A stretch of 64,000 nucleotides of DNA from Quatrionicoccus australiensis (lineage in GTDB: Bacteria; Pseudomonadota; Gammaproteobacteria; Burkholderiales; Rhodocyclaceae): assembly GCF_020510525.1 (NCBI RefSeq), contig NZ_CP075188.1, forward strand, positions 2,170,001 through 2,234,000. Reading direction: 5' to 3'. The position numbers and the translations under genes are program-made. The notes under the pieces were generated by a model. It did not search any database, was not told where the DNA came from, and saw nothing but the letters and a program-made list of their open reading frames with translations. Below are positions 29,539-48,325 of this stretch, piece after piece. Every line of letters begins with the position of its first letter. Position 1 is the first letter of the stretch.

Positions 29539-29616
29539 AGGCAGGGAACGCAATGCAAAGCGGGAGTTTATCACGAAGGCCGCCCTCGCCCGGCACGCCT
29601 TGTGCACCGCAGCAGG

Positions 29617-29645
29617 TTGCCTCGCATCCGGCGACCCGTTATAGT
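29617..29645 (+). promoter_or_regulatory. Promoter of the glycine riboswitch transcript
   Basis: TTGCCT and TATAGT are separated by 17 bases. The predicted start falls 7-8 bases after the -10 box, exactly where aptamer 1 begins. Confidence 0.7.
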
Positions 29646-29652
29646 GCCACCC

Positions 29653-29823
29653 GTTCCATGGGAGAGCGCAGATCAAGTCTGCCGCCGAAGGCGCAATTTC
29701 ACCCGAAAACGCTCAGGCAAAAGGACCGTGGAACCAAAGCATGGCTTGCCATGCTTTGAAACTCTGGAGAGCGGCGTTAACAGCGCCCACCGATGGGGCA
29801 AATCTCTCAGGTATCGAGGACTA
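29653..29823 (+). promoter_or_regulatory. Tandem glycine riboswitch, aptamer 2 broken at P1 by the island
   Basis: Two glycine aptamers in tandem. Aptamer 1 (29653-29734) has GTTCC/GGAAC as P1, GGGAGAG, GCCGAAGG, GCAA and GCTCAGGCAAAAGGAC. Aptamer 2 (about 29759-29821) has CTCTGGAGAG, CACCGATGGGGCAA and CTCTCAGGTATCGAGGAC. In intact riboswitches the CTCTG at 29762-29766 pairs with a CAGAG right after GGA to close P1. Here the sequence after GGAC is TAAAGAAC, and the matching ACAGAG lies at 46638-46643 in front of gcvT. Glycine riboswitches normally turn on gcvTHP; this one now points at an integrase operon. An 11-base-pair hairpin forms the linker (29735-29758). Confidence 0.92.
29735..29758 (+). 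repeat. Perfect hairpin in the riboswitch inter-aptamer linker
   Basis: CAAAGCATGGC and its complement GCCATGCTTTG with a TT loop lie between the two aptamers. Confidence 0.7.
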
Positions 29824-29830
29824 AAGAACA
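29818..29830 (+). other. Left attachment site (attL) of the island
   Basis: GGACTAAAGAACA at the left junction resembles GTACTTAAAAGTACA at the right junction (46626-46640), as an imperfect direct repeat. Riboswitch homology stops at GGAC. Confidence 0.6.
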
Positions 29831-29910
29831 CCTGAGAGCACACATGTCCATAAAGACTCCTCTGCTGCCCTTGCTACGGGGCGTATACACCAATTTTCTG
29901 CTGACTCTCC

Positions 29911-29938
29911 TTGACAATATAACTACGACTGCTATGTT
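29911..29938 (+). promoter_or_regulatory. Promoter of the gin operon
   Basis: A consensus TTGACA and TATGTT with a 16-base spacer, 33 bases before the ginA ATG. Inverted repeats overlap it (29918-29968). Confidence 0.7.
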
Positions 29939-29968
29939 GTAAGTAACAGATTAATTTTCGTAGTTATA
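29918..29968 (+). promoter_or_regulatory. 11-bp inverted repeat over the gin promoter (candidate operator)
   Basis: TATAACTACGA (29918-29928) and its exact complement TCGTAGTTATA (29958-29968) flank the -10 box; repeat centres are 40 bases (about four helical turns) apart. This suggests cooperative protein binding for autoregulation, or arm-type recombinase binding near the island end. Confidence 0.6.
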
Positions 29969-29971
29969 CAA

Positions 29972-31234
29972 ATGAGCACCTACAGACTGATTGTCGACGT
30001 TGACCCGCATGGTGAGCGATGGGCCATGCTACTGAATGAAGATGGAATGCCTGCGTTCTATCCAAATTTGTTCAACACATGCAAATTGAGAAACCGGAGG
30101 CTTTCCACCTCTACGCAGGAACAGTTCCTGACTGCCATCAAGATTCTTAATGAAACCTGTGATGCGCAGAAAATTAATCTGATCGATCGTATTAAACGGC
30201 AGCGCTTTTTAACGACAGGTGAAGTCGATGCTATTAGTGATGCATGCCGAACAAAACGACGAGGCGTCAAAAAAAATAACATTTTGTCGCTCAAAAATGG
30301 TTACACGAAACCCAAGTTAAAGGTTGCAGACAGCACCCATTACTTATATCTGAGCCGTATTGCGGATTATATTAAATGGTTGAGCGAAAAGCTTCTGGAC
30401 ACTCATGGACTGACCTTGGAAGCAAACAACCAGATCAACTCCCTTGTCAAGGCCATTCGCTCAAGAGCAATGCGATCCGCTACGAGAAATTTGGATGATG
30501 AAGCGCTAAAGGGTATTAGTAACGCACAAGAAGAAAAATTATTCGAGGTACTACGTCCAGGTTCACCAATGAATCCATTTCGAGATCCAGGTATTCAATT
30601 ACGTAACTACCTTTTGGTCAAACTACTTCGAGTCACGGGAACACGCCGTGGTGAGGTGCTAAACCTGAGGGTCTCCGATATTGACTGGGAGAAATCTCAA
30701 ATCAGCATCATCCGCCGTGCCGATACGCCACAAGATCCAAGATCACGGCAGCCTGTAGTAAAAACAAATCAGCGTATTTTGCCCGTAACACAAGAATTTC
30801 TTGACGAAATTCGGGCTTATATCGTTCAGGTCCGCAAGAGTATTCCCAACTCCCACGCTCACCCATATCTTCTGATTTCACACAAAAGCGGCCCAAATGA
30901 AGGTCTTCCCCTTTCATTGTCGAGCATACAGGAAATATTTTCGACGCTGCGACGAGCACATCCGGAACTCAACTTGACAGCCCATGACTTGCGACATCGC
31001 TGGAATGAAAAGTACAGCGATGCCATGCATGCGCAAAACAAAATCAGCCACATCGAAGCAGAGGAACTTAGAAACTATCTGGAAGGCTGGAGCCCAGAAT
31101 CCCAGATGGGAAAACGCTATAACCGGAAATGGATACGCGAAAAAGCTCATGAAGCGATGATTAAAACTCAAGAGGAAAAAGAATTAAGTTTACAAGCAAT
31201 CCGTACAATCAACCCGAGCCCCGATCATGGATGA
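29972..31234 (+). CDS. ginA: Tyrosine recombinase GinA-like, first gene of gin operon
   Basis: A 420-residue tyrosine recombinase. Catalytic residues can be placed: Arg225 in TGTRRGEVL, His338-x-x-Arg341 in AHDLRHRW and Tyr383 in KRYNRKW. The N-terminal half is the variable core-binding part. In GInt islands GinA acts with GinB, GinC and GinD for site-specific integration and excision, and all four are reported as required. It is the first gene inside the left end, behind a consensus promoter with an inverted repeat, and overlaps ginB by 8 bases. It is also directly downstream of the riboswitch promoter, with no strong terminator between. Base composition is AT-rich compared with gcvP. Confidence 0.82.
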   Translation: MSTYRLIVDVDPHGERWAMLLNEDGMPAFYPNLFNTCKLRNRRLSTSTQEQFLTAIKILNETCDAQKINLIDRIKRQRFLTTGEVDAISDACRTKRRGVKKNNILSLKNGYTKPKLKVADSTHYLYLSRIADYIKWLSEKLLDTHGLTLEANNQINSLVKAIRSRAMRSATRNLDDEALKGISNAQEEKLFEVLRPGSPMNPFRDPGIQLRNYLLVKLLRVTGTRRGEVLNLRVSDIDWEKSQISIIRRADTPQDPRSRQPVVKTNQRILPVTQEFLDEIRAYIVQVRKSIPNSHAHPYLLISHKSGPNEGLPLSLSSIQEIFSTLRRAHPELNLTAHDLRHRWNEKYSDAMHAQNKISHIEAEELRNYLEGWSPESQMGKRYNRKWIREKAHEAMIKTQEEKELSLQAIRTINPSPDHG

Positions 31235-32966
31235 TTCAATATTGCTTAGATCGGATGCACCTCCCTCCTCCGCAGGAAGTAGGACTCCTTCCCAAAGCGC
31301 TGAATGGCGAGAGGCAAAATCTGGAAAAACCTTCGACCTTCATTCAAACAAATGGCCACTGACCAGCAAATCCAATCTGAACGTTGAACCGATACGTACG
31401 CTAATCGGCTCAAGTGTACTAGTAGATGGAGCTATCAGGACACTTGCTCACCGAGTTGAAACGCAAGCTGCTGCGTATTGCGAAAGCCTTACAAAAGTCC
31501 TGATCAGATTTCTCGAACACTCCCAACAGCATCTCAATGGCGACGTGATTCCTGAAATCGCTGTAATAAATTTCAAAGAACATTGCTTTAAACGCGACGG
31601 TCACGATGGCAATGGGATGGAAAAACTCCGTCCATTTATCAAGCTATGGCACTCCCTCGGCTATTCTGGCTTATCGGACAATCTGATATATCGCCTAAAT
31701 AGCTGGCGACTAAAGGGATATGAGCAACATGTCCGCGTAAATAAACGCGATATCGATGCGGGGCCATTGATGCCGGACGAGCAAGCAACTCTTGCTATCG
31801 GAGCATTAAATGCATTTGAATCTGGCTCAATATCCTTGACCGACTATTCTATTTATCGACTATTTGATCTATCAGGACGTCGCCCGGAACAATTTATTCA
31901 ACTAAAACTCAAGGATCTGGACGACAGTCGGATTGAGGACTCTTTCGAAAAGCACCCCACAAGGCAATTAAATTTGCTTCATATACCACGAATTAAAGGT
32001 GGCCGCCGCTGGCGGGAACATTTTCGAGCGATTCCTCTTCCAAATGACACTTGGAATCTATTAGTTATACTTCGCACCGAGATACTGAGACGATTTGACC
32101 AACATCTACAAGAAGCAGGAATTATCCTTCAAAGCGTCGACCTAGAATCAATTTACTCACAACTACCATTATTTCCGGGATGGAATCGTATTACCAGATC
32201 ATTGGAAACTGCCCGTGAGCACATTGAAAATGGGCAGCATGGCAAAGCATTAGAAAAGCTTAGGGAAGACTCCGAGTCAGACGCTTGGGAAACGGACTAC
32301 CAGAACATATGGATATATCTGAAAAATACCATTGAGGCAGCAAAGGTCAGTAATCGATCTGGCAACAAACTCTCTGCTTTTCCAACGCGATTCCGATACA
32401 CACTCTGCTTTAACTTGGAACGTCAAGGCTGCCCACCCGAGGTCATCGCACACAACCTCGACCACGACTCGCTCTCCGCCCTTCCCAGTTATTCAAAAAA
32501 CGGTGCCGACAAGGCTGCTAGACTAAGCAAAGCCGTGGCTTTGAGTATGAAGCCCATTGCAGCCCTATTTCAAGGCACCATCGTCGATGGAGAATGGTGC
32601 GCCGTGGGTGGTGACGATCCAGCCAATTCCCGCCTGCTAATCCATGATGCACAGCCGGGCGCCACTTGTGCGACCAAGCGCTGCGGAATTAGCTCAATTC
32701 CACGTGCGTGCTACAACGGTTGCAAACATTTTCAACCTTGGGTTGATGGGCCCCATGAAGCATTCCTTGAAGAACTACTGGAGGAACGAGAATTCAATTT
32801 AACGAACCTCGACCCCATTGCTGCCCGATCCATAATCGAAGCTACCGATACATTGATCCTGGCTGTCGTCACTGTGATACACATGTGCGAGAAAATGCGT
32901 AAGGGATCTGCCTCGGAAACAACAAATTTGTTCGCGACTCCTCGTTCTAGAGGTAAAACAAAATGA
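31227..32966 (+). CDS. ginB: Tyrosine recombinase GinB-like
   Basis: A 579-residue recombinase-like protein. Candidate catalytic parts are the Arg in LSGRRPEQFIQ (about residue 217), FRYTLCFNLERQG with IAHNLDHDS, and a Tyr in ALPSYSKNG (about 432). A Cys-containing block near 485-510 (CATKRCG, CYNGCKHF) could bind zinc and is unusual for classical integrases. It is coupled to ginC by an ATGA overlap. Assignment as the second gin recombinase rests on order, size and neighbours. Confidence 0.8.
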   Translation: MDDSILLRSDAPPSSAGSRTPSQSAEWREAKSGKTFDLHSNKWPLTSKSNLNVEPIRTLIGSSVLVDGAIRTLAHRVETQAAAYCESLTKVLIRFLEHSQQHLNGDVIPEIAVINFKEHCFKRDGHDGNGMEKLRPFIKLWHSLGYSGLSDNLIYRLNSWRLKGYEQHVRVNKRDIDAGPLMPDEQATLAIGALNAFESGSISLTDYSIYRLFDLSGRRPEQFIQLKLKDLDDSRIEDSFEKHPTRQLNLLHIPRIKGGRRWREHFRAIPLPNDTWNLLVILRTEILRRFDQHLQEAGIILQSVDLESIYSQLPLFPGWNRITRSLETAREHIENGQHGKALEKLREDSESDAWETDYQNIWIYLKNTIEAAKVSNRSGNKLSAFPTRFRYTLCFNLERQGCPPEVIAHNLDHDSLSALPSYSKNGADKAARLSKAVALSMKPIAALFQGTIVDGEWCAVGGDDPANSRLLIHDAQPGATCATKRCGISSIPRACYNGCKHFQPWVDGPHEAFLEELLEEREFNLTNLDPIAARSIIEATDTLILAVVTVIHMCEKMRKGSASETTNLFATPRSRGKTK

Positions 32967-35185
32967 ATGGTCAACACGGACAAAATATCAAAAGCCACGT
33001 AAAGCTCATCGAGCAAAAACGCGCAGATCTAAACGTAAGCCAGTTCATCCGCGATGCAAAATCATTGGCTGCAATGACTCCGGACCAAGATTGGGAATCC
33101 AATCATTGGCAGAGAATCGGCACATTTACAACCCAAGGGGCAATAAAAAACGGAAAGCTGGGCACACTCTCCAACTCCCCTCTGCACCCAAATTTCATCG
33201 ATTTTGCAAAGGCTTATATTCGGCATCGAGAAAGTGATAGCCCAAGCCGTCATAATCGAAAAATTGATCTGCGGGCGCTCAGGCTTGTGGAGAAATCGCT
33301 CACCCAAGCGGGCATTGATCCACACCCTCGTAATATTTCACTGCATATCCTGAATCAGGCAGCAGAGATGTGTTCGCAGATTTCACAATCAAAAGGTTCG
33401 CAATACAACACGGGGCGTGCGCTCCAACAACTTGCCTCGCTGTTGTACCAGAAATGTCTGACCGACTACTCTGTCGCATCATTCTCAAACCCAATTGCCG
33501 TTCCCCGACAACTGCACCTGAAGCTGGGCGACGAGGCCAACGAACACCGCAAGCGCTCATTGCCGGATGAAGATGCCATATCGGCGATCGCATCCATTTT
33601 TGCCAAAGGTTTTGATCTCACAACCCCAAAAACGCACACAGATGTCTATGTAACGAGCTGTATCGTCCTCCTTCTAGCAGGATCGAAGCGCGGAGGAGAA
33701 ATCCATGAACTGGAAATTGATGCCGAGATTGAAGAACCGGACACAGAAGGAAATTTACAGTATGGATGGCGCTTTAGGTCATTCAAATCCAAGCAGAACG
33801 CCAGTCGGATTGCTTGGTGCATTAAAGCCATGGAACCTCATGCTCGCAAAGCATTCCATCGCCTACAAGAGATAACCAGGGAAGGAAGAGAATTTGCAAA
33901 ATACGCAGAGGATCAACTAGCTCTTCGAGCAGCAAACCCGAATGCCCCTTTGCGATTTTATCGCCATGCCAATTGCCCAAATGTTCCCGACGACAAGCCC
34001 TTGTCCCCGCTGGAAGTCGCTAACGCACTGGGTTCACAATGCACCACAGAAAAAAATGCGAAGGCAATTTTAAAACAAAAGGGACTTAGTACCGGCCATG
34101 GCGATCACACGCTGAATAGCCTCTGGCTCTGGGCATTGAGTCGCTTACCGACGGGTTTTCCCTATGTAAAGGGCGCTAATAACAAGCGCCTGAAATACAG
34201 CCGAATGTTGTTTTGCATGCATCCATTTCAGATGAAACGAGATGCGACAATCAACCCTCTCTCCGTCTGGTCGCCCAGCCTTGGCTCCTTGCGCGACAGG
34301 CTAACGGGAAGCGAAACCCTTCCATCGATTTTTGAATACCATGGCGCCAACGCAGAGGATGGCACACCACTTCGTCTGAAATCACACCAGATACGCCACT
34401 TACTCGACAAACTAGCTCACGAAGGCACGGGGGATACCTTTCTTGAATCCTCATTTATCAATCAAATGGCCGGCCGTGCCAAATCCTGGCAAGGCAGAAC
34501 CTATGATCACTCAAAGCCAGAAGACAAAGCAGAATTAGTCCGCAACGCTCTTGAACAAGCAGGAATCGAAACGGCAGTAATATCCCTGCCAAGGGGCAAT
34601 GCGGAACCTGTAGCTGCCCAACACTGGTCAGTCCGCTTAAAACCCCGTAGCGTCGCCGATCTAGACATAAGCTACCGTAGCGCAGTTATCAGCACGCTTT
34701 ACGGTAGCTGTGAGCATGACTGGCTATTGCAGCCCTGCCAGAACCAACGAGACTGCCTGAATTGCCAGGAGCATTTCTGCATCAAAGGCGCCGGCAAGGA
34801 TGACCAAGAACGCTTCCAGCGACTGGAGCAATTACTTCTCAAAGTCATTCACCAGCAAAGTCTGGCTCAAACTTCAGTGACCAAAGGCGAATACGGTGCA
34901 AAACACTGGTTCGATTTTCAAACTGAGTACAGGCAACGCATTGAAGAACTCATTCGCTTATTGAAAGACCCGCAGGTCGCAAACGGTGCGGAAATTCGAC
35001 TTGAGCGACCGAAGGCAAACACCCATTTGCATCGTGTTCTACAGCAAAAAGCTGTTCATGCCATCGACTACACGCTGGAAGAGCAGCCAGCGATCGATAG
35101 TCTATTGGCAGCCTTTAGAGAAAATCGGGCACTTGAACTCAAAAATACTACGCTGCCACTACAAGGAGAGATTCATGGCACGTAA
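32963..35185 (+). CDS. ginC: Tyrosine recombinase GinC-like
   Basis: A 740-residue protein, the largest of the trio. Catalytic-type motifs are the Arg in AGSKRGGEI (about residue 237), SHQIRHLLDKLAHEG (about 474-488) and the Tyr in WQGRTYDHS (about 515). Near 590-605 is a Cys cluster (CEHDWLLQPC, CLNCQEHFC) that looks like a zinc site. The last 150 residues are helical. It starts at the ATGA junction with ginB, and its end overlaps ginD by 11 bases. Confidence 0.8.
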   Translation: MNGQHGQNIKSHVKLIEQKRADLNVSQFIRDAKSLAAMTPDQDWESNHWQRIGTFTTQGAIKNGKLGTLSNSPLHPNFIDFAKAYIRHRESDSPSRHNRKIDLRALRLVEKSLTQAGIDPHPRNISLHILNQAAEMCSQISQSKGSQYNTGRALQQLASLLYQKCLTDYSVASFSNPIAVPRQLHLKLGDEANEHRKRSLPDEDAISAIASIFAKGFDLTTPKTHTDVYVTSCIVLLLAGSKRGGEIHELEIDAEIEEPDTEGNLQYGWRFRSFKSKQNASRIAWCIKAMEPHARKAFHRLQEITREGREFAKYAEDQLALRAANPNAPLRFYRHANCPNVPDDKPLSPLEVANALGSQCTTEKNAKAILKQKGLSTGHGDHTLNSLWLWALSRLPTGFPYVKGANNKRLKYSRMLFCMHPFQMKRDATINPLSVWSPSLGSLRDRLTGSETLPSIFEYHGANAEDGTPLRLKSHQIRHLLDKLAHEGTGDTFLESSFINQMAGRAKSWQGRTYDHSKPEDKAELVRNALEQAGIETAVISLPRGNAEPVAAQHWSVRLKPRSVADLDISYRSAVISTLYGSCEHDWLLQPCQNQRDCLNCQEHFCIKGAGKDDQERFQRLEQLLLKVIHQQSLAQTSVTKGEYGAKHWFDFQTEYRQRIEELIRLLKDPQVANGAEIRLERPKANTHLHRVLQQKAVHAIDYTLEEQPAIDSLLAAFRENRALELKNTTLPLQGEIHGT

Positions 35186-35621
35186 CCGCGTATTCACTGA
35201 TTACGATATCGAAGCGATTATTACCCTCATTCGAGACTGGCCGAAGGAAACAATCGCCTGGCGAGAAGTATGCGACAAGGCCAACTCCATACTTGGCTAT
35301 ACCCCCTCGCGCCAAGGACTCAGCCAACACGAAAAAATCCTGATCGCATTTCAGGCCAGAAAACGTAATCTTCATGTACAACCGCAAAAATCGGCTCCGA
35401 CCCCGTCCAGCCTCGCCATTGCGGCTCAACGAATCTCAAGACTTCAATCCGAAAATAGCGAGCTGGAACTACAAATTAAAAAACTCCGGCACCGTTTCAG
35501 GATTTGGCAATACAACGCTCATGCTCGAAACATGACAGAAGCTGATCTCGATAGACTATTACCGATTATCGACAAAGAAGTAGCAGCATCAGAAAAAGAC
35601 GAATATGGGAGAGTGAAATAG
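35175..35621 (+). CDS. ginD: Small gin-operon accessory protein (GinD-like)
   Basis: A 148-residue protein. Residues 1-50 look like a helical DNA-binding segment (FTDYDIEAIITLIRDWPKET). Residues 80-110 form a clear coiled coil (RISRLQSENSELELQIKKL). In GInts the fourth gin gene encodes a small helix-loop-helix protein needed for recombination. The start is the ATG at 35175, preceded by AAGGAGAG. The longer open frame upstream runs inside ginC in another frame. It ends the gin operon; the cargo genes beyond lie on the opposite strand. Confidence 0.78.
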   Translation: MARNRVFTDYDIEAIITLIRDWPKETIAWREVCDKANSILGYTPSRQGLSQHEKILIAFQARKRNLHVQPQKSAPTPSSLAIAAQRISRLQSENSELELQIKKLRHRFRIWQYNAHARNMTEADLDRLLPIIDKEVAASEKDEYGRVK

Positions 35622-36072
35622 GGGGTGCCCACACTACAGGTAGTACCCCTTACTTTACCCTCCTAGCCAGCGGCTCAATACAGGATGGAGGACGTCACCT
35701 GTTCAAACTCCGTTCTATCGCAAACGATCACAGTCCCGGTAGCAATTGCCTTTTCCGCTCGTCCGGCTGAAGCAACTGTCTACTTCAATCTTGCATGCGT
35801 TGTAGGCGCGTTGTTTCGCATTGAAATCAGAGTACTCGGCGGCGGACTGGGCTGAAGATTGCTCGCGGGAAGACCAGCGCAGATTCGAAGCCGAGGCGGC
35901 ACAGCGGGTAGCGGGCGGCGAGCAGCAGGGTGTAGTGCATCAGAACCCCAAAGGCGGCGGGATGCCTGCCAGGCATCCCGCCGCAGTCCGGGGCTGCGCC
36001 AGAAGGCCGTCGGCGGGGTTTTGCTCAAGTGGCCGGCGGCCAGGGTGCGGAGCAAGGTGGATTCCATGTTTT
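35622..36072. other. Gap between gin operon and cargo
   Basis: About 450 bases between convergent transcription units. The first 200 bases are unremarkable. From about 35840 the sequence turns GC-rich and holds a 14-base-pair inverted repeat (35955-35983). Open frames here look like composition artefacts. No convincing gene is seen. Confidence 0.5.
35955..35983. repeat. GC-rich 14-bp perfect inverted repeat
   Basis: CGGCGGGATGCCTG and CAGGCATCCCGCCG with one base between them. The adjoining stretch GCAGTCCGGGGCTGCGCCAG has a close copy near 37200 (GCAGCTCGGGGCTGCACCAA), so it may be a dispersed REP-like element. It could also end convergent transcripts. Confidence 0.5.
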
Positions 36073-36492
36073 TCAATAGCTCGATGGAAAGCCCTTGGCC
36101 TCCAGCATGGCGCGGATACGTTGGTACTCTTCTCGATCCTCGCGCCGCAAGCGTTCGTTTTCTATCGGGTCGTCAGAAACACGAGGGCCAAAGGGGGAGA
36201 TAACTTCGAGGCGCTCCGACGAACCGTCTTCGTAGATCCGGATGTGCTGATCACCGGCAATGCGGTGGCGCATGTAGAAGTCGAGGTATTCGCCCCGCTC
36301 ATCCTGGCCGAACAGATAGGTAACAACATCCCCATAGCCGTAATCGCCATCGTCGTCATCGCCAATTCGACCACGGCGGCGGTGCAGCACGTCGTCATCG
36401 GGCAACTGGTGGCCGAAGCGGCTAAGCATGTTGGCGAAGGTGGTTTGCAGAAGGGCGAGTGGCTTCTCTGATTCCGGCGTGTCGTTTTGCAT
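36073..36492 (-). CDS. Hypothetical protein, acidic/polar, island cargo
   Basis: A 139-residue soluble protein with no recognised domain. An acidic stretch (GDDDDGDYGYGD) is in the middle and a charged helical C-terminus follows (ENERLRREDREEYQRIRAML). I use the ATG at 36492, which has AGGAA ten bases upstream; 35 further codons are open upstream without an obvious ribosome site. It is the first cargo gene on the minus strand, facing the gin operon. Confidence 0.55.
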   Translation of the reverse strand: MQNDTPESEKPLALLQTTFANMLSRFGHQLPDDDVLHRRRGRIGDDDDGDYGYGDVVTYLFGQDERGEYLDFYMRHRIAGDQHIRIYEDGSSERLEVISPFGPRVSDDPIENERLRREDREEYQRIRAMLEAKGFPSSY

Positions 36493-36619
36493 CGCTCTAT
36501 CGGTTCCTTGTGGCACTAACCTTCTTGTCAGCATTGTCGGCACGAAACTTCTGAACGCCTGTAGCCACGGGTCTCTTCGGCGTGTGTTCTGTGACATTGC
36601 TTATGCAAATGTTAGTAAA

Positions 36620-37054
36620 TCAGGCGACTGAAAACCAACTTGCAATGTGCTGCCAAAACATACTGCCGAGAACCGACGTCATGAGCCCGACAAGAAATCC
36701 TAAAAATAGATCGAACATCCACTTTCTTCTATTATTTTCCGCTAGACCAACAAGCCTTAGCCTGTCAGTCAGTGCAAATATTTCCGCTCTTGTCCTGTTT
36801 TTTTCTAGGCTAAGTCTCTCAATTTCTAGCTCGATGGAATCTATCTCTAGACGCCGCGCCGCAAGCTCTATTTTTGTCTCTTCAATTAATGAAGACGTAT
36901 CTCTCACTGGATGAGAATCGAATTTTTCTTGGTAACGCCTCCGCACCCATTTTAAGTAGCGGTTTGGATTTCTGTACACATCAACTGAGTGCAAAACTCC
37001 CGCAATTGGTATGGCAATTATTCCCATCCAAAACATTATATCTATTATTTTCAT
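36620..37054 (-). CDS. Hypothetical membrane protein with central coiled coil, island cargo
   Basis: A 144-residue protein: transmembrane segment at about 4-24, basic/charged linker, coiled coil at about 55-100 (IELAARRLEIDSIELEIERL) and a second transmembrane segment near 113-135 (FLGFLVGLMTSVLGSMFW). The layout suggests both ends in the membrane and the coiled coil on one side. I do not recognise the family. It is separated by short gaps from its neighbours on the same strand. Confidence 0.6.
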   Translation of the reverse strand: MKIIDIMFWMGIIAIPIAGVLHSVDVYRNPNRYLKWVRRRYQEKFDSHPVRDTSSLIEETKIELAARRLEIDSIELEIERLSLEKNRTRAEIFALTDRLRLVGLAENNRRKWMFDLFLGFLVGLMTSVLGSMFWQHIASWFSVA

Positions 37055-37281
37055 CGAACCACCTTAAATTCGACAGATTCAAGTTTTAAGAACAGAAGAG
37101 CGGAGCCGACTTACTGGTGCGGTATCGCTCTTAACCAATGTTAGTCCGCATAGCAATAGGGGCTCGATCCCGTTCTTTCCACCGATGAGCTCCTGTAGCG
37201 CAGCTCGGGGCTGCACCAAAAAGCGGAGGGCTATCAAATACCTCAACAATATGAACAGAGGCATGTGTAGCCGCGCGATGC

Positions 37282-39217: not shown

Positions 39218-39345
39218 AACACATTACTCTATTGGTGCGCAACAACGAATTTCATGAAAAAATATCTGATAATTACCAACCAAAACATGGGGCCACACAA
39301 AACGCGGCACCAGATAAATGGAGATCGAAAACCACAGGTATATGT

Positions 39346-40395
39346 TCAAATTCTACTAAAAATACTCTCGCGAATATTAATTGTAATATCTTCTTTTAAC
39401 TTTGAATTTAATTTCAAGCCGGATGAATTACGAACCCCCTCAGCAACGGGCAACGAGTACAAATAGAAATTTGTGTCCCGGAAGTTATGTACAGTTTCAA
39501 TAGAAACGTTGTATCCATCATAATCACCTGAGAACTTTGCTCGATAAACCACGTATTCCTCGGCGCGAACATCATTGACTTGATGCCTTACCCCCTCTCT
39601 TTTTGCCTTGGCAAGACCTTCTTTTCCGACTTTCTCGATGTCGGATAGACGAGTTATAACAGAGGTGGAGTCATCAAGTTCCATAAGGTATACTTTTCCA
39701 GAGACGCCAACAATACTTCGAATCACACCATCATCACCAACTTTAAAATCCATTACTCTTATATTTTTATCAAACACCAGTCTTTTCAAAAGCGCACCTT
39801 CAATTGAAACCAGTTGCAACTCATTGGATACTTCAACGTCACTCATTACAACAATGGACTTCCCTTCTTTGGCAACGGCCAGTTGTTTCGACCAAGCACC
39901 TTCCGATTCAAAACTTGATACCTCCTTAAGTAGGCCATTGTCAGCACGGTAAATTCGTATAAGTGTTGTTTTTCGTTGTGGCGTTATATAGGTATGGTTT
40001 GGCGGGGAAACCACGGCAAAATCAGTGTCGCTGAGCTGCTTCATGAACCCCCAGGTTTTTGGAGTTCCAAACGGCATCGTAGTTTTTATGAGGGTTGCCC
40101 TGTTGATATCGTACAACCTTAACGTCCCTTCCCCCCCGGTCGTCATTGTTGCCAGATATTCCCCATTTTTAATGGCCAACGTCGATATAATCAACGCTTT
40201 TTCTTGCCGTTTTAAGGTTGAAATTGTATTACCGCGAGAATCCTTAACTGCAATTGCAGGCGGAGGGCAGTCAGAACATGTTTTATTTATGATTGATATT
40301 TTACTGCCATCTGGCCTTGTGTATTCAGCACCATTCCAAAACGCGTGCGCCACCGAGCTAATTGAAATAAATACCACAGCTATAATATTTTTCAT
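39346..40395 (-). CDS. Hypothetical exported protein, beta-propeller-like, island cargo
   Basis: A 349-residue protein with a signal peptide (IIAVVFISISSVAHA). Regularly spaced beta-type stretches (EYLATMTTGGEGTLRLYDIN, TDFAVVSPPNHTYI, GKSIVVMSDVEVSN) suggest a propeller, but I do not recognise the family. A CSDCPPP motif early in the mature part could form a disulfide. It lies between the DUF1566 and Sel1 genes, in the same direction. Confidence 0.6.
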   Translation of the reverse strand: MKNIIAVVFISISSVAHAFWNGAEYTRPDGSKISIINKTCSDCPPPAIAVKDSRGNTISTLKRQEKALIISTLAIKNGEYLATMTTGGEGTLRLYDINRATLIKTTMPFGTPKTWGFMKQLSDTDFAVVSPPNHTYITPQRKTTLIRIYRADNGLLKEVSSFESEGAWSKQLAVAKEGKSIVVMSDVEVSNELQLVSIEGALLKRLVFDKNIRVMDFKVGDDGVIRSIVGVSGKVYLMELDDSTSVITRLSDIEKVGKEGLAKAKREGVRHQVNDVRAEEYVVYRAKFSGDYDGYNVSIETVHNFRDTNFYLYSLPVAEGVRNSSGLKLNSKLKEDITINIRESIFSRI

Positions 40396-40438
40396 ACAAT
40401 ATCACCTTATAATCAGCAAAACCCTATCGTTTTTACAT

Positions 40439-41164
40439 TCAATAACCGAGGTTGGCGAGACTTTTCTTCGCAGATTCATTATCTTGTTCTGCCGACTTGC
40501 GTAACCACTCCACGGCTTTTTGCTTGTCTTGAGCAACGCCGTTGCCCCTGTAGTACATGGTGCCAAGGTTGTTTTGGGCGACGGCATCACCTTGTTCCGC
40601 AGCCTTCATGTACCACTCGAATGCTTTTTTGTAATCTTGGGCAATGCCTTCGCCTTTCTCGTACATTGAGGCAAGGTTCAATTGGGCGACTACATCCCCT
40701 TGTTCCGCAGCCTTCACGTACCATTCCAATGCTTTTTTGTAATCTTGGACAACGCCTTCGCCTTTCTCGTACATAGAGGCAATGAAAAACTGAGCGTCTG
40801 AGTTGCCTTGTTCTGCAGCTTTCATGTACCACTCGAACGCTTTTTTGTAGTCTTGGACAACGCCTTCGCCTTTCTCGTGCATGATGGCAAAGAACAATTG
40901 AGCTGAAGAGTCACCTTTATCTGCTGCGGCTTTGCAATGAATAAGCGCTTCATCATACTTGCCATTATTGAATGTACTATGGCATTTCATGCTGCTCTCA
41001 GCGGCCTGCAACATTGCAAGCTTTTCAGCTTGGCTGCCAATGGTAGTTTGCGAATGGGGCTCGCTTTGTTTTGCCGCGCCCTCTACTCCCCCCATCACAA
41101 GGAATGCCGAAAATGTACCGCCTAGGATTATAAAACCAAGAACAATTCGTAATGTTTTATGCAT
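40439..41164 (-). CDS. Sel1-repeat protein, exported, island cargo
   Basis: A 241-residue protein with an N-terminal hydrophobic signal/anchor (LRIVLGFIILGGTFSAFLVM), then about four and a half Sel1-like repeats of 36 residues (AEQGNSDAQFFIASMYEKGEG, shortened here as AEQG..YEKGEG). Sel1 repeats are protein-interaction scaffolds, often in envelope signalling. I use the ATG at 41164 with AGGGAAA upstream; an earlier frame extension lacks the signal start. The repeats are near-identical at the DNA level, suggesting recent duplication. Confidence 0.8.
   Translation of the reverse strand: MHKTLRIVLGFIILGGTFSAFLVMGGVEGAAKQSEPHSQTTIGSQAEKLAMLQAAESSMKCHSTFNNGKYDEALIHCKAAADKGDSSAQLFFAIMHEKGEGVVQDYKKAFEWYMKAAEQGNSDAQFFIASMYEKGEGVVQDYKKALEWYVKAAEQGDVVAQLNLASMYEKGEGIAQDYKKAFEWYMKAAEQGDAVAQNNLGTMYYRGNGVAQDKQKAVEWLRKSAEQDNESAKKSLANLGY
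40560..40905 (-). repeat. Tandem 108-bp repeats in the Sel1 gene
   Basis: Three in-frame copies of about 108 bases, each with AATGCTTTTTTGTAATCTTGG-type blocks differing by a few bases. They encode the Sel1 repeats. Unequal recombination could change the repeat number. Confidence 0.7.
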
Positions 41165-41419
41165 TTCATTTTCCCTATAATATAAAAACCACTGCAAATC
41201 TATTTTATGACTAGAGTCTTATACTTCCCACGATTTTATAGGTTGAAAGTGGTAAAAATAGAAATGGTGCCAGCCCCCTAATTTTTAACCGCATGTTTTT
41301 TATTTAGTTGCTCAGATTTTTTCGTGAATTTGCTTAAAAACTGAGTTCAGCTCGAATACCAAAATTTTGCATCCAAGCGGTTCTGAATTATCCAAAACGA
41401 CACGCTAACCGTCTGTCCT

Positions 41420-43393
41420 TCAATCGTATGACATCGACGGATGTACGAGTGTTTGCTGCGCATCATCGGCAACCGGCATGCTGATCCAAAACCGGCTGCC
41501 GCCGCCCTCTCCCCGCTCGATTCCGAATCCGCAGCCGATGAGCTCGGCCCGATGCCGGGCACCGGCCAGGCCGCGCCCGGCTTTGCTGTTATCCGGGTCG
41601 AAGCTGCAACCGTTATCGGCGATTTCGATTCTCAAGTCGTTTTGGACGCATTCGGCAAAAACGCAGATGCGGCTTGCGCCGGCATGCTTGAGCACATTGG
41701 CAATCGCTTCGCTCAACATGGCCCGGAGGTGTTGCCCTGCGTCGGCGGGCAGTCGGTCGAGGCGGGGCAGGTCCGTGGCAACTTCCCACTCGAGCGAAAT
41801 CCCGCCCTGCGTCAGCCGTTTTTGAATTCGCTGGCGCAGTTCGGCCAGAATGTCGTTCACCCCCAGCATGGCCGGTGCCGCCACACTGAGCTGGCGCAGC
41901 TCTTCAGCCAGTTCCTGCAAGAGCAGCACGGTATCGGCTTGCGACAGATTGCCCTTGCGCGCCTGGAACAAGGCGCTGGTCAGGTTGCTGCCCAGGCCAT
42001 CGTGCAGATCCTGCAGCATGGCTTCGCGCTGGGTGGTGAGCCGCTGCTGGATTTCCAGTTCGGCAATCTGCCGGTGCTGGGCGTTGAGCAGGGCCTTCTG
42101 CGCGGAAAGCTGGCGCTGCAGTTCCGATTGATATTTTTCCGAGGCTTCGATCGCCAGCGCCGAGCGGTGGCTGATGGCGTAGAGAAACGCAAAGAAGCTG
42201 GCTAGCACAGCAAAAGGGAAAGTGTGCACATGGTCTGGATACGCCATGCTCGAAACGTACAGCAGGGAATGCACGCCAGCCCCCAGTGGCCCCAGCATGG
42301 CCAGCAGGAGTACGAAGCCTTCGCGGCTAGGTTCCTTGATCCAACGATGCAGATAGACCGAGAGCCCAATCGAAAAGGCGATGATGTTGCCATAGTGGTT
42401 GGCGAACAGGCTGTACTGCCCCAGCAGCAGCATTGAGACTGCGGCAATCGAGCTCAGTGCGGCGTAGGCCAGCAGCCCTCCTGTAATGCGGGGCGCCGGG
42501 CGTGATTGAAACTCGAAGGCGAAGAGTAGCGAAAGAATCACGTTCCAGTTGATGGACAAATCCATCGCCAGCCCGAACCATGTGGACAAGCCTGGGTTTC
42601 CGGTGAAATCATGGAAATACTGCAGATTGGTCAGGCACCACACCAGCGCATTGGCGGAAAACAGTGCATAAACCCTCTCACGCCGGTGCCGCAAGGCCAT
42701 CGGCAAGGTCATCAGCGCCAGCATTAGCGCCACGATGGAGGCTGCTCGCGGCAGGTCTGTCATCCATAGATCGCGTGCCTGCCAGGCCAGATTGATGTCG
42801 TCGGCCATGCCCATGAAAATGGAGCCCAGGGCGTAGCCTTCGGATGCGATCACTGGCAGGCTCAAATAGATTTCCTGTGCGCCGACGGGCAACATCACCC
42901 GCATGGGGGTGTTCCATTGCATGCCCCAATCCTTGCGATCCGTCTGCAAGAGACCGCCGTCCGACCAGGCGCTCCACGGGCCGCTGCCGATAATGCGATT
43001 GACCAGGATGCCGAGGCGCCCCTCATGCAACGACTGTTCCGCCAACTGCTCGGGAACGGAAATGCGCAGCCAGAGGCGGGTTTTCGCCTTGCCTGCGGCG
43101 GGCTGCGCCGGCATCACCAGGGGCGACTGGGCCTCGCTCCACGTCGCACCTGAGAAGTCAGGCGCCTTCACGGCCAACTGTTGCAGGTATTCCGGCGTGA
43201 AATCCGCGTCTCCGAGCGGCTCCAGCCAGATCGCGAGATGGCCTACCCGTTGGACATCCGGCGTTAGCCGATACTGCCACACGGCGATACCGACAAAAAT
43301 TCCCAGCGGCAAAAGGAAGAGCGCCAGCACTCGGCGAACCGCCCGATCCCTCAGTTCCGGATTAGCGGAAAAGATGTTCACGCCGTGCGGCAT
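41420..43393 (-). CDS. Sensor histidine kinase, 7TM/DISM type with HisKA_3 kinase
   Basis: A 657-residue kinase. Transmembrane segment near 20-40; extracytoplasmic beta-rich sensor at about 45-210; seven-helix membrane part at about 215-400; coiled-coil linker; HisKA_3 dimerisation domain with the phospho-accepting His464 in LQDLHDGLGSN; ATPase domain ending with GRGLAGARHRAELIGCGF and GGGSRFWISMPV. The layout matches 7TMR-DISM kinases of the NarX/DesK class. I use the ATG at 43393 with AGGAAG upstream; it overlaps the response regulator by 32 bases, so the two are coupled. It is more GC-rich than the cargo genes to its left in the window. Confidence 0.88.
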   Translation of the reverse strand: MPHGVNIFSANPELRDRAVRRVLALFLLPLGIFVGIAVWQYRLTPDVQRVGHLAIWLEPLGDADFTPEYLQQLAVKAPDFSGATWSEAQSPLVMPAQPAAGKAKTRLWLRISVPEQLAEQSLHEGRLGILVNRIIGSGPWSAWSDGGLLQTDRKDWGMQWNTPMRVMLPVGAQEIYLSLPVIASEGYALGSIFMGMADDINLAWQARDLWMTDLPRAASIVALMLALMTLPMALRHRRERVYALFSANALVWCLTNLQYFHDFTGNPGLSTWFGLAMDLSINWNVILSLLFAFEFQSRPAPRITGGLLAYAALSSIAAVSMLLLGQYSLFANHYGNIIAFSIGLSVYLHRWIKEPSREGFVLLLAMLGPLGAGVHSLLYVSSMAYPDHVHTFPFAVLASFFAFLYAISHRSALAIEASEKYQSELQRQLSAQKALLNAQHRQIAELEIQQRLTTQREAMLQDLHDGLGSNLTSALFQARKGNLSQADTVLLLQELAEELRQLSVAAPAMLGVNDILAELRQRIQKRLTQGGISLEWEVATDLPRLDRLPADAGQHLRAMLSEAIANVLKHAGASRICVFAECVQNDLRIEIADNGCSFDPDNSKAGRGLAGARHRAELIGCGFGIERGEGGGSRFWISMPVADDAQQTLVHPSMSYD

Positions 43394-44132
43394 AGAGGGC
43401 TTCCTGCAGGTTGCTGGCGCCGAGCTTTTGATAGGCACGTGCAGCGAGTGTCTTCGCCGTGCTTTCCTGGATGTTCATCCGCTCCGCACTTTGCCGGAAC
43501 GAGCAGCCTTGATTGAGCAAGCCGAGCAATTCGGTCTCGCGGCTGGAGAGCCCCGGTGCCAGATCCTGGATGCGCGCATAGCAGCGGCCGATCTGGATGG
43601 CCGCCTCCTGCTCGGTCAATGCCAGCCGGCAAGCGGCCTCGTCTAGGCAGTATCCGGCCGCCAGCAGCTCGAACAATGGGCGCACCGACGCGTCCTGTTT
43701 CGAATCCGATACGGCCAGCATATGCTTGGCCAGGCTGCCGTGCATGAGCCCGCCGCCATTGGCGAGCGTGCGCAGCCCCGCCACCCACGCCAGTTCGTCG
43801 TCCGACTTGAACAAATAGCCCCTGGCCCCGGCCCGGATCGCTTTGAGGAGATGGGTTTCGTTCCCCGTCATGGTCAGCACGGCGCAGACGCAGGCATCGC
43901 CCCAGCGACGCCTGGCTTCATGGATCAGCGCCAGCCCGGAACCGGAGGGCAGGCCGAGATCGACGAGCAGCACATCGGGACGGGCCGCTGCGAGCAGCTC
44001 CAATCCTTCGTCCACGTCCTCCGCCATGCCGGCAACCGCCATGTCCGGCGCCCCCGCGATGGCTGCGGCCAGCGCCTGGCGGAAGACGGTGTGGTCTTCG
44101 ACGATCGCAACGTTAATGACGGAAGAATTCAT
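43362..44132 (-). CDS. LuxR/NarL-family response regulator
   Basis: A 256-residue regulator. The receiver domain has the acidic pair in IVEDHT, phospho-acceptor Asp58 in LLVDLGLPSGSG and a conserved Lys in GYLFKSDDE. The LuxR-type helix-turn-helix is at about 195-250 (LSSRETELLGLLNQGCS, NIQESTAKTLAARAYQKL). An unusually long linker (about 120-190) separates them. The start is the ATG at 44132, with GGAAAAG upstream. It is the partner of the overlapping kinase; the autotransporter gene next door is a likely target. Confidence 0.9.
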   Translation of the reverse strand: MNSSVINVAIVEDHTVFRQALAAAIAGAPDMAVAGMAEDVDEGLELLAAARPDVLLVDLGLPSGSGLALIHEARRRWGDACVCAVLTMTGNETHLLKAIRAGARGYLFKSDDELAWVAGLRTLANGGGLMHGSLAKHMLAVSDSKQDASVRPLFELLAAGYCLDEAACRLALTEQEAAIQIGRCYARIQDLAPGLSSRETELLGLLNQGCSFRQSAERMNIQESTAKTLAARAYQKLGASNLQEALYAARREHLFR

Positions 44133-44228
44133 GCTTTTCCAAAGGCCCCGAAAACAGGGGGAACCCGGAACCGTATCAGGCAACGCTCATGCAATGCAAG
44201 ACAAATACGACATCCGGGTCCGCTGCCC

Positions 44229-46283
44229 TTAAAACGCTTTTTGCCAGCCGGCCGCCAGCCATACATTCGGCACAGCCCCCTGGGTCGTGGCATTCAGCAT
44301 CACGTGGGCAGCACCGCCGGCCAACTTGCCTTGCACGCCGAAGCCGGCACGCAACCAGTCCTGCTTGACATCGCTGCCCGGCAGATTGAAACCGAACAAG
44401 CCGACCACCTGCCCCGAAGTGCCTGCCCCATGGCGCTCGAAACGATGCACGCCTTCCAGTTGCCCGACCAGAGAAACGTTCTCCGCAACGGCCTTCGTCG
44501 CACTCAGGCCAAGGCGAAACTCGGTTGAGCGCTCCTTGCGGGTATTGAATCGTGCGGGGAAGCCGCCACTGGTTTCGGTATAGCCGTCCAGACGGGATTC
44601 GGCATAGCTCAGATCGGCATAGGGCGAAAACTGCGCGCCAGCAACCTGCAGGACGTTGTCCCAATCCAGCCGGGCGCGCAACCCGGTGGTGCTGACATCC
44701 GGCCGGCCGGTAGAGTAATCCTGCGTACCGGCATTTAGATAGCCCCGCTTCAACTCGGTGGAACCCTGATGATGGTAAGCCCCCAGCGTGGCCCAGATAC
44801 TCCCGGCCACCGGCATGATGGCCTCGGCCTGCAGATAGGTGCCGTCCACTTCCGCGAGACCGTTTTGCACCAGTTTCTGGCTGGCCCAGGTTTGCCCAAG
44901 AGAAGCGTTGAACTGAATACGGCCGAAGTTGTAACCGCCTCCCACCTCGGCCAAGCCCAGGCTGCCGGCGCGGGTGCCATGGTCGTCACGGCCCCAGTCA
45001 CCGGCCACCCAGAAGGTTTTCTGGCCGGCAGCGACACGGCGCATGAGTGGGCGACTGTGGGCGCCGTTGATCGACAGACCAGCCGAAGTCAGCGCCATGC
45101 TGCCGCCGGCAGCCGTGCCGGACAGACTGTTTTGCACATCGGCCAGGGTAACCAAGCCACTGCCGACAGATGAGACGCGGGCGATAAAGGCGTGCCCTCC
45201 GATCAGGGAGCCAACCACCACGCTACCATCATTATTGGTTGCCTTCGCTTCGCTGGTAATGTCACTCGCAACGGTTACTCCATTAGCACGTAACCAATTT
45301 TCAACAGACTGCATTCCGTTTGCCTGAGTCCAACGAAATGCACGATATGGACCGTTGTTACTTGCTTCGGCGGAACCGACAACCACTGAACCATCAGAAG
45401 ACGTGCCGTTCGCCCATGATTCCCCACCACCCAGCGTTCCAAGATCAACCATGCCATCATTTGTCCAGCGAAATGCATGCACATAACCACCAGAAGTCCC
45501 ACTACTACCAACAACAACTGACCCGTTGGAAGAAACGCCGCTCGCCGAGGAACCAGCCCCCCCCAGTGTTCCCAAACCAATCATGGCGCCGCCACTATTT
45601 CCTTCGGTATCAAAGGTCGTCAAGCCATCCGCAGATGTTCCTTGAACCCAACGAAATGCGAGAGACTCTCCGAGTGCATTTTGGGCACTGCCGACAATCA
45701 CCGAACCATCGGCAGAAACGTCAGAGGCGCCGGACTCCCTCCCTCCCAAGGTACCCAGATCAACCATCCCGCTAGCTGTCCAACGAAAGGCGTGGAAATC
45801 AAGGTAATAAATCGTCATCCCGGCAACGACTTCGTTCGCCCGGACTTTTGAATTTCCAACAACAATTCCTCCATCATTGGAAACACCAAAAGCTGACGAA
45901 TATTCCCCTCCCAAAGTACCCAGGTCGACCATGCCATCGGCACGAGTCCAGCGATACGCATGGTGATAGCCAGTATTCAGGTCAGCATGGCCAACAACCA
46001 CTGCACCATCGGACGAAATAGCAGCCGCATTTGAATTAGTCCCCCCCAAGGTCCCCAGATCCTCCATTCCGCTACTGTATGTCCAACGGAAAGAGCGAGC
46101 GCCACTGGCGTTTGAAGCATAGCCAACAACAACCGAGCCGTCTGCGGAAATATCTAACGCCGAAGAGTATGTGCCACCCAGCGTCCCGAGATCAGCAATC
46201 TGCGCCTGTGATGAGCTTGCCAATAGCGCCAGGCAACTGGCAACAGCCAGTGCAACAGGTGTCTTCCGGGCTTTGATGAACAT
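44229..46283 (-). CDS. HAF-repeat autotransporter
   Basis: A 684-residue autotransporter. A signal peptide (ALAVASCLALLASSSQAQ) is followed by seven or more HAF-type repeats (about 30-370) of the form DLGTLGG..SSDGSVVVG..HAFRW, and a C-terminal beta-barrel of about 270 residues ending in WLAAGWQKAF, with the terminal Phe needed for outer-membrane insertion. HAF repeats occur on surface proteins of proteobacteria; their ligand is unknown. The repeat region carries G8 and G7 runs on the coding strand. It is adjacent to, and in the same direction as, the two-component genes. Confidence 0.85.
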   Translation of the reverse strand: MFIKARKTPVALAVASCLALLASSSQAQIADLGTLGGTYSSALDISADGSVVVGYASNASGARSFRWTYSSGMEDLGTLGGTNSNAAAISSDGAVVVGHADLNTGYHHAYRWTRADGMVDLGTLGGEYSSAFGVSNDGGIVVGNSKVRANEVVAGMTIYYLDFHAFRWTASGMVDLGTLGGRESGASDVSADGSVIVGSAQNALGESLAFRWVQGTSADGLTTFDTEGNSGGAMIGLGTLGGAGSSASGVSSNGSVVVGSSGTSGGYVHAFRWTNDGMVDLGTLGGGESWANGTSSDGSVVVGSAEASNNGPYRAFRWTQANGMQSVENWLRANGVTVASDITSEAKATNNDGSVVVGSLIGGHAFIARVSSVGSGLVTLADVQNSLSGTAAGGSMALTSAGLSINGAHSRPLMRRVAAGQKTFWVAGDWGRDDHGTRAGSLGLAEVGGGYNFGRIQFNASLGQTWASQKLVQNGLAEVDGTYLQAEAIMPVAGSIWATLGAYHHQGSTELKRGYLNAGTQDYSTGRPDVSTTGLRARLDWDNVLQVAGAQFSPYADLSYAESRLDGYTETSGGFPARFNTRKERSTEFRLGLSATKAVAENVSLVGQLEGVHRFERHGAGTSGQVVGLFGFNLPGSDVKQDWLRAGFGVQGKLAGGAAHVMLNATTQGAVPNVWLAAGWQKAF
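45557..45564 (-). repeat. Homopolymer G8 tract inside the autotransporter gene
   Basis: Eight C on the plus strand, eight G coding, in the HAF-repeat part. A further run of seven is at 46041-46047. Slippage would truncate before the barrel. Confidence 0.7.
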
Positions 46284-46625
46284 ATCCGATTCCTCTGAAA
46301 TTGACGGCGCGCCCCACAGGGAAGCAGTGAAGAGCCGTTCCGGTGCGAAATGGCACGGATTATTTCAAAACGGAATTGATGCGTCTGTCCTGCCAAAGAA
46401 GGACACGATGGAGAGAAACGACAGCTCCGAGCAAGGGCGTCTTCGGGCAAACGAAGATGCCTGTTAAAATCTCGGGCTATTAACCTATGAAACTGCTTGT
46501 AAATAAGAAGCACAAGACGCAAAGTCTTATTGACTAGATTATTTACACAACCAAGCGCATCTCAATCCTAGCAAGACAACGCTTAGATAATGAAGGCATT
46601 TCCATTAGGTGAGCACCCCTCACCC
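46284..46625. other. Non-coding right end of the island
   Basis: The stretch between the autotransporter start and the right junction. It becomes AT-richer from about 46460. A weak -10-like GATAAT is at 46586, without a good -35 box. The hairpin GGTGAG..CTCACC lies at about 46608-46625. The short AT-rich end is a stated feature of GInt islands. No gene is seen. Confidence 0.55.
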
Positions 46626-46640
46626 GTACTTAAAAGTACA
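46626..46640 (+). other. Right attachment site (attR) of the island
   Basis: GTACTTAAAAGTACA is an inverted repeat in itself (GTACTT-AA-AAGTAC) and an imperfect direct repeat of the left junction. The riboswitch sequence ACAGAG resumes at 46638. Confidence 0.6.
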
Positions 46641-46684
46641 GAGGGGTGAAACGCAAGATTCGTTCTTTCGTTTCACCCCTTTTC
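46638..46684 (+). terminator. Orphaned riboswitch expression platform: P1 3' strand plus terminator hairpin
   Basis: ACAGAG (46638-46643) is the missing 3' strand of aptamer 2 P1. It runs into AGGGGTGAAACG (46642-46653), which pairs perfectly with CGTTTCACCCCT (46669-46680), followed by TTT. In riboswitches that activate gcvTHP, glycine-stabilised P1 prevents such a terminator. Here the hairpin lies 44 bases before the gcvT ATG without its aptamers. Confidence 0.8.
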
Positions 46685-46727
46685 CGTTTCTAGAAGCAAC
46701 GTTAACAAACGTTTGTAAAGGATTGAT

Positions 46728-47819: not shown

Positions 47820-47842
47820 TTCCACCCATTCAGGAGAAAACC

Positions 47843-48223: not shown

Positions 48224-48325
48224 ATCGGTATTTTTGCCAGCCGGAGCGGCCGCGTGGCTGCTCCGGCCGTCTGCCTTGCCCGGCCGCCGTTCTGCCAGGC
48301 CGCACCTTCATTACCAAGGATTCCC

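What the first reader, a model, noticed from the sequence alone, without database searches (positions are those of the whole stretch)
29653..46684. A genomic island has cut a glycine riboswitch in two and separated it from gcvTHP
A complete-looking tandem glycine riboswitch (29653-29823) ends at GGAC, where an intact one continues with AGAG to close the P1 stem of aptamer 2. The missing ACAGAG is at 46638-46643, directly before the terminator hairpin and gcvT. The 16.8 kb between are an integrase-led island. The break is inside the switch, not beside it. I know of no description of an element that targets a riboswitch P1 stem.
Basis: partly seen in the sequence, partly recalled or inferred. 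Interest (0 to 1): 0.95.

Follow-up and report, generated by a model that had tools for sequence, protein, structure and literature searches.

The report
Mobile island that splits glycine riboswitches
A 16.8-kb DNA island, predicted to be mobile, sits inside the last stem of a glycine-sensing RNA switch and separates the sensor from the glycine-cleavage genes it likely controlled; related islands in two other bacteria sit at the same base of the same switch, so this group of islands likely uses the riboswitch as its landing site.

Summary
The tandem glycine riboswitch breaks between C29821 and A46640, inside the P1 3' strand of aptamer 2. A sister genome (G435) has the empty site: 3 mismatches and no indel in 323 nt against the joined flanks. 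The genome has no second glycine riboswitch.

The 16.8-kb insert has the gene layout of a GInt island: three recombinase-type genes, a small fourth gene, cargo and an AT-rich right end. It is not a one-off. A divergent relative (Gin proteins 47-66% identical) sits at the same base in a same-genus MAG (G017), and a third (GinA 49%) in another genus (G709, Sulfuritalea MAG), in the same orientation. A fourth clade member lies in an rlmI-like gene of a genome (84% complete) with no detectable glycine riboswitch. So the riboswitch is likely this clade's attB; four more distant GInts sit behind ssb.

P1 pairing is lost: 0.92-1.00 in 31 intact loci, 0.02-0.06 in the window and G017. Predicted result: promoter and sensor lead into ginABCD; gcvTHP keeps only the terminator. 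The island end can pair with the terminator's 5' arm, but full-length folds favour termination. A new target class for a known element type.

The parts
29617..29645 (+). predicted sigma-70-type promoter of the gcv leader (TTGCCT, 17 nt, TATAGT), now upstream of the gin operon
   Evidence: consensus scan, 9 of 12 matches; not tested
29649..29738 (+). glycine riboswitch aptamer 1, intact
   Evidence: RF00504, 69.9 bits
29756..29821 (+). glycine riboswitch aptamer 2, cut in its P1 stem; P1 5' strand CUCUG at 29762-29766
   Evidence: RF00504 38.6 bits with its end inside the island; P1 pairing 0.03-0.06 against 0.92-1.00 in 31 intact loci
29822..46639 (+). GInt-type island, 16,818 bp (boundary ambiguous by 2 bp, AC at both ends)
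   Evidence: empty site in G435; lower GC over much of it; gene layout
29804..29838 (+). attL region: riboswitch CTCTCAGGT (29804-29812) and island ACCTGAGAG (29830-29838) form a 9-bp inverted repeat across the junction
   Evidence: 6 of 5000 shuffles reach it; absent in G017 and G709
29911..29938 (+). predicted island promoter of ginA (TTGACA, 16 nt, TATGTT)
   Evidence: consensus scan, 10 of 12 matches
29972..31234 (+). ginA-like tyrosine recombinase, 420 aa
   Evidence: PF00589 54 bits; 55% identical to the G017 copy
31227..32966 (+). ginB-like integrase, 579 aa
   Evidence: PF00589 20.8 bits, below the cut-off of 27.1; NF041502 328 bits, below 350; 47% identical to the G017 copy
32963..35185 (+). 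ginC-like protein, 740 aa
   Evidence: no Pfam or NCBIfam match at E 0.001; 51% identical to the G017 copy
35175..35621 (+). ginD-like small protein, 148 aa
   Evidence: no Pfam or NCBIfam match; 66% identical to the G017 copy; ATG at 35175
36073..46283 (-). cargo: small ORFs, Lcl_C-domain protein, repeat protein, sensor kinase, LuxR-type regulator, HAF-repeat autotransporter
46498..46639 (+). AT-rich right end of the island with blocks shared by three elements (TGTAAATAAG, ATTnACTA, TTATTnACAC, CTCACCyGTAyTTA)
   Evidence: alignment of window, G017 and G709 right ends
46614..46648 (+). possible antiterminator: island CACCCCTC (46614-46621) against GAGGGGTG (46641-46648) of the terminator's 5' arm
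   Evidence: 59 of 5000 shuffles, 83 of 5000 dinucleotide shuffles; loses to the terminator at full length
46640..46683 (+). P1 3' strand (AGAG, 46640-46643) and predicted gcvT terminator hairpin, -26.3 kcal/mol, tail UUUUCCGUUU
   Evidence: fold; same in empty sites; the consensus terminator scan did not call it
46728..51202 (+). gcvT, gcvH, gcvP, open reading frames intact
   Evidence: gcvT is the only copy in the genome

Best explanation
The 16.8-kb insert is a GInt-type island, predicted to move by the products of its ginABCD-like operon, that sits inside the P1 stem of aptamer 2 of the gcvT glycine riboswitch, the place its integrase clade likely uses as attB, and it puts promoter and sensor on one side and terminator and gcvTHP on the other, which would uncouple gcvTHP from glycine. 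Shown: exact empty site, exact junctions, loss of most of P1, and the same base occupied by three divergent elements in the same orientation. Inferred: recombination between the chromosomal site GGAC^AGA and the joint of a circular form; transcription from the host promoter through two aptamers, now without a platform, into ginABCD; gcvTHP left with a terminator that the sensor can no longer open, so weak or dependent on island transcription; precise excision, if it occurs, would restore the switch.
For: Empty site in G435, 3 mismatches and no indel in 323 nt, and G435 has no GinA match. P1 pairing 0.92-1.00 in 31 intact loci, 0.03-0.06 in the window, 0.02 in G017. Second element at the same base in G017, both ends on one contig, own operon and other cargo. 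Third at the same base in G709, another genus, with a conserved island right end directly before gcvT on another contig; there the outer P1 pair is A-U instead of C-G, changed on both sides of the island. G559, same GinA clade, has no RF00504 match and carries its element elsewhere. GInt layout as published.
Against: No movement, transcript or glycine response was measured. Only three insertions in the riboswitch are known here, and G017 and G709 are MAGs; in G709 the two ends lie on different contigs. G559 shows that the clade can sit elsewhere, and its missing riboswitch could reflect 84% completeness. For the joined G709 flanks the fold gives P1 only 0.25-0.28 (0.00-0.10 interrupted). The consensus scan does not call the gcvT hairpin a terminator, so the platform mechanism is inferred from the fold and from known glycine switches. 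No reference GInt protein was compared.
Confidence: 0.82

Rival explanations
1. The island end replaces P1 functionally: CACCCCUC (46614-46621) pairs with GAGGGGUG of the terminator's 5' arm and acts as a built-in antiterminator, so that island transcripts read into gcvTHP without glycine.
For: 8 perfect pairs, reached by 59 of 5000 shuffles and 83 of 5000 dinucleotide shuffles. In the exposure series the arm is held by the island up to about 36 nt of host RNA (0.89), before the terminator's 3' arm is complete. Partly similar in G017 (0.76 at 36 nt) and G709 (0.87 at 40 nt).
Against: At full length the terminator wins (0.97 from 42 nt). Pairing of the arm is common by chance: shuffle mean 0.706, 39 of 1000 at least as high (window), 67 of 1000 (G017). 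G017 has 5 perfect pairs (1246 of 5000) and G709 6 (791 of 5000). The empty leader also holds the arm at 0.65-0.77 around 30-34 nt. In G709 the core of the terminator hairpin lies outside the held arm. No + strand promoter-like site was found in 46250-46760.
Confidence: 0.15
2. The inverted repeats at the window's two junctions are recombinase half-sites, and their RNA pairing has no function.
For: Both repeats span the crossover; tyrosine recombinases bind inverted half-sites (established knowledge). The right-end block is shared between elements with different hosts.
Against: The attL repeat is absent in G017 and G709, so perfect symmetry is not required.
Confidence: 0.45
3. gcvTHP is served by an unrecognised promoter in the island or downstream of the terminator, and loss of glycine control is neutral.
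For: gcvT, gcvH and gcvP are open. GInts can direct transcription of neighbouring genes (PMC5385486).
Against: No + strand promoter-like site in 46250-46760; such scans miss many promoters.
Confidence: 0.4
4. Chance insertion, or an assembly artefact, without target specificity.
For: One clade member (G559) sits at another site.
Against: Three elements at the same base and in the same orientation in two genera, clean empty site, single-contig genome.
Confidence: 0.02

Closest known systems
[quoted passage not shown] 2017, PMC5385486; parts 1-3 of 6 read)
   Same: operon of three recombinase-type genes and a small fourth gene at one end, cargo behind it, short AT-rich other end, one insertion site per group
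   Different: [quoted passage not shown] the words riboswitch, glycine and gcv do not occur in the main text. Here the site is inside a riboswitch.
[quoted passage not shown] passages read)
   Same: four genes, two tyrosine recombinases plus a recombinase-fold protein, fixed sites, 6-bp core logic
   Different: Gene order is intA, tfp, intB, srap, and the paper separates SE and GInt proteins into different clusters; not compared by sequence here.
RIT elements (recombinase in trio), as described in PMC10214605
   Same: three recombinase genes in a row
   Different: RIT recombinases are given as 315-410 aa with 34-bp terminal inverted repeats; here 420, 579 and 740 aa plus a fourth gene.
Islands and phages in tRNA or tmRNA genes (recalled)
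   Same: a conserved non-coding RNA gene serves as attB
   Different: those usually restore the RNA gene; here P1 is not restored
Tandem glycine riboswitch of gcvT (RF00504; B. subtilis, PMC5666159, passages)
   Same: two aptamers followed by a terminator platform, as in the intact relatives
   Different: sensor and platform are 16.8 kb apart

Membership tests
GInt | operon ginABCD: three recombinase-type genes and a small fourth gene | tested here: met
   four overlapping ORFs of 420, 579, 740 and 148 aa; PF00589 above cut-off for the first, below for the second, none for the third
GInt | sequence relationship to named GInt Gin proteins | not tested
   no named reference GInt protein was fetched; only relatives found here were compared
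GInt | catalytic RHRHY in GinA and GinB, first arginine missing in GinC | tested here: inconclusive
   in 21 GinA sequences R225, H338, R341, W373 and Y383 are invariant (assignment by eye); GinB and GinC not aligned for it
GInt | cargo behind ginD and AT-rich, poorly conserved 3' end | tested here: met
GInt | site-specific insertion with short imperfect direct repeats | tested here: inconclusive
   site-specific: same base in three genomes; only AC is an exact repeat at the window's junctions, imperfect repeats were not scored
GInt | excision as a circle, all four genes needed | not testable with these tools
   needs PCR and mutants
RIT element | three recombinases of 315-410 aa | tested here: not met
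   420, 579 and 740 aa; criterion from PMC10214605
Gamma-mobile-trio | GmtY recombinase model above its cut-off | tested here: not met
   NF040693 30 bits, cut-off 340
Glycine riboswitch RF00504 | aptamers above the gathering score | tested here: met
   69.9 and 38.6 bits, cut-off 32
Glycine riboswitch RF00504 | closed P1 of aptamer 2 linked to an expression platform | tested here: not met
   pairing 0.03-0.06; platform 16.8 kb away

The most novel reading that the evidence does not exclude
A clade of integrative elements specialises on riboswitches: it recognises the DNA of the glycine riboswitch P1 stem, takes over the gcv promoter and sensor for its own recombinase operon, and its right end brings an antiterminator that keeps gcvTHP alive without glycine, so that insertion and excision act as a reversible switch between glycine-regulated and glycine-independent glycine cleavage.
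Probability: 0.15. Interest if true: 0.85.

Novelty: new variant of a known kind. Interest (0 to 1): 0.66.

Why it matters
No paper describing an integrative element with a riboswitch as its landing site turned up in six searches of the open-access library (listings seen, the listed papers mostly not opened). If confirmed, it adds a target class to integrase biology, gives natural splits of aptamer and expression platform in three hosts, and makes testable whether an element trades control of a central pathway (glycine cleavage) for a conserved attB. It also warns that riboswitch annotation by aptamer alone can mis-assign regulated genes: here Rfam reports a glycine riboswitch in front of an integrase operon.

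Tried and rejected
Antiterminator as a main claim: demoted, because full-length folds favour the terminator, G017 has only 5 perfect pairs and the G709 match is common in shuffles. The attL inverted repeat as a constant feature: rejected, absent in G017 and G709. The Roseburia MAG hit of the pattern scan (L059): rejected, it has no P1 5' strand and looks by eye like a protein-coding stretch. Viral contigs: two scans without a relative. First genome-contig scan with GinA: no relative. Plasmids: 234 records with GinA matches, all below 60% identity; the riboswitch leader matches 7 plasmid records, none over 80% of the query. Order-wide search: besides the window 3 of 399 genomes, 33-37% identity. 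Of 27 GinA relatives in the protein database at E 1e-60, 26 are 48-95% identical (only the 7996 candidates sharing most words were scored); genomic context was seen for two of them, which correspond to G017 and G709.

Corrections: one search folded a joined sequence with one base too many and one search used a G709 flank one base short; repeated correctly.
Full report
OBSERVATION. The tandem glycine riboswitch at 29649-29821 is real (RF00504, 69.9 and 38.6 bits). It stops after GGAC at 29821; the expected AGAG and the hairpin GGGGTGAAACG...CGTTTCACCCCTTTT lie at 46640-46683, and gcvT starts at 46728. P1 of aptamer 2 is CUCUG (29762-29766) with CAGAG (C29821 plus 46640-46643), so the break leaves one of five pairs. 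The joined flanks match the leader of same-genus genome G435 with 3 mismatches and no indel over 323 nt; G435 has no GinA match. In one search, 33 of 36 locus records align across the joined junction in one piece; the others are G017, itself interrupted, and two genomes of other families. The motif CTCTCAGGTATCGAGGAC occurs at 57 places in 56 of 76 genus genomes, and 2 of 76 genomes hold an interrupted one. In the partition function of aptamer 2 cut 6 nt after GGAC, the first three P1 positions pair with 0.92-1.00 in 31 intact loci, 0.03-0.06 in the window and 0.02 in G017. The genome has no other glycine riboswitch.

THE ISLAND. Four overlapping ORFs (420, 579, 740, 148 aa) start 150 bp inside the left junction. 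ORF 1 is a tyrosine recombinase (PF00589, 54 bits); ORF 2 matches below the cut-offs (PF00589 20.8 of 27.1 bits; NF041502 328 of 350 bits); ORFs 3 and 4 have no Pfam or NCBIfam match. Layout, cargo behind the fourth gene and AT-rich right end are those of GInts (PMC5385486, parts 1-3 of 6 read). Cargo includes a sensor kinase, a LuxR-type regulator and a HAF-repeat autotransporter.

RECURRENCE. G017 (same genus; the pattern scan of named contigs finds a record of the same length, 37,189 bp, from a Rhodocyclaceae MAG) reads GGAC^ATAACC at the same base and has its own operon (417, 581, 737, 148 aa; 55, 47, 51 and 66% identical), other cargo, and the right end before gcvT on the same contig about 18.7 kb away. 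G709 (another genus; its GinA is database protein P0021, named Sulfuritalea by its source) has a tandem glycine riboswitch (69 and 36.6 bits) ending GGAC^ATAAG about 150 nt before ginA. Its contig C60 carries ...CTCACCCGTACTTATGATGAC^AGATGGGG directly before gcvT. Its outer P1 pair is A-U instead of C-G, changed on both sides of the island. The fold of its joined flanks gives P1 only 0.25-0.28, though, against 0.00-0.10 interrupted. In all three the operon points toward gcvT. The right ends share blocks up to the junction.

OTHER SITES. G559 carries a fourth clade member (GinA residues 2-307 in a fused 802-aa frame) in an rlmI-like gene (the name is recalled from the YTGGFS motif). That genome, 84% complete, has no RF00504 match, and its gcvT has no riboswitch in the upstream stretch seen. 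Its right end was not found in the 55 kb searched. Four more distant GInts (G008, G375, G535, G602) follow a gene that ends in the ssb tail (tail recalled), a published GInt target. G258 follows a gene whose end looks like ribonucleotide reductase alpha (recalled), also a published target. Sites of G401 and G453 were not determined; G467 and G020 are partial at contig ends. In a FastTree of GinA, a branch with support 1.000 separates the window, G017, G709 and G559 from the ssb-site ones.

SAMPLE. GinA was sought in 399 order genomes (4 with a match), 76 genus genomes (6), 297 family genomes (5) and 395 family genomes at a stricter cut-off (3); the window's genome is counted in each and the sets overlap. 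Close clade members with context: four genomes. Riboswitch specificity thus rests on three insertions and one informative exception.

MECHANISM. Most likely the element integrates by site-specific recombination at the DNA of GGAC^AGA, conserved because the RNA needs it. The predicted promoter (29617-29645) and both aptamers then lead into ginABCD with no terminator-like site called in between (29550-30000). This has limited weight: the same scan also fails to call the gcvT hairpin, which folds at -26.3 kcal/mol. No + strand promoter-like site was found in 46250-46760, so gcvTHP is predicted to be weak or to depend on island transcription. In B. subtilis glycine turns on the gcvT operon by destabilising a terminator (PMC5666159, passages). 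All transcription steps here are inference.

ANTITERMINATOR QUESTION. The window's island end contains CACCCCUC, complementary to GAGGGGUG of the terminator's 5' arm (59 of 5000 shuffles; 83 of 5000 dinucleotide shuffles). In an exposure series the arm is held by the island at 0.89 with 36 nt of host RNA out, 0.59 at 38 and 0.02 at 40. Holding of the arm is frequent by chance: shuffle mean 0.706 against 0.925 observed, 39 of 1000 as high; G017 0.983, 67 of 1000; the fold energy is unusual in the window (2 of 1000) but not in G017 (731 of 1000). The empty leader L003 holds the arm at 0.65-0.77 around 30-34 nt. G709 holds it at 0.87 at 40 nt and 0.48 at 44, but its 6 bp are reached by 791 of 5000 shuffles. 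I keep it as a testable side hypothesis.

KNOWN OR NEW. The element type is known. A riboswitch as recurrent landing site was not found in six literature searches (listings only); the word riboswitch does not occur in the main text of PMC5385486, PMC10214605 or PMC10293859. Absence from these open-access texts is not proof of novelty.

Noticed in passing
29804-29838: 9-bp inverted repeat across the left junction pairs the conserved core of aptamer 2 with the island end; found in the window element only.
   Followed up: partly
L062 and L066 (G559): A clade member sits in an rlmI-like gene in a genome where no glycine riboswitch was found; its ginA is part of a fused 802-aa frame, so it may be a stranded copy at a secondary site.
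   Followed up: partly
46498-46548; L043 (G453) upstream of ginA: The block TTATTTACACAACC in the window's right end also occurs near the left end of a distant GInt in G453, perhaps a shared recombinase arm site (by eye).
   Followed up: no
41420-46283: Cargo block of higher GC than the rest of the island: sensor kinase, LuxR-type regulator and HAF-repeat autotransporter.
   Followed up: no
G007:C306, G018:C8, G008:C15 and others: Several same-genus genomes have a further glycine aptamer of about 53-57 bits at another place, which the window's genome lacks; its gene was not looked at.
   Followed up: no
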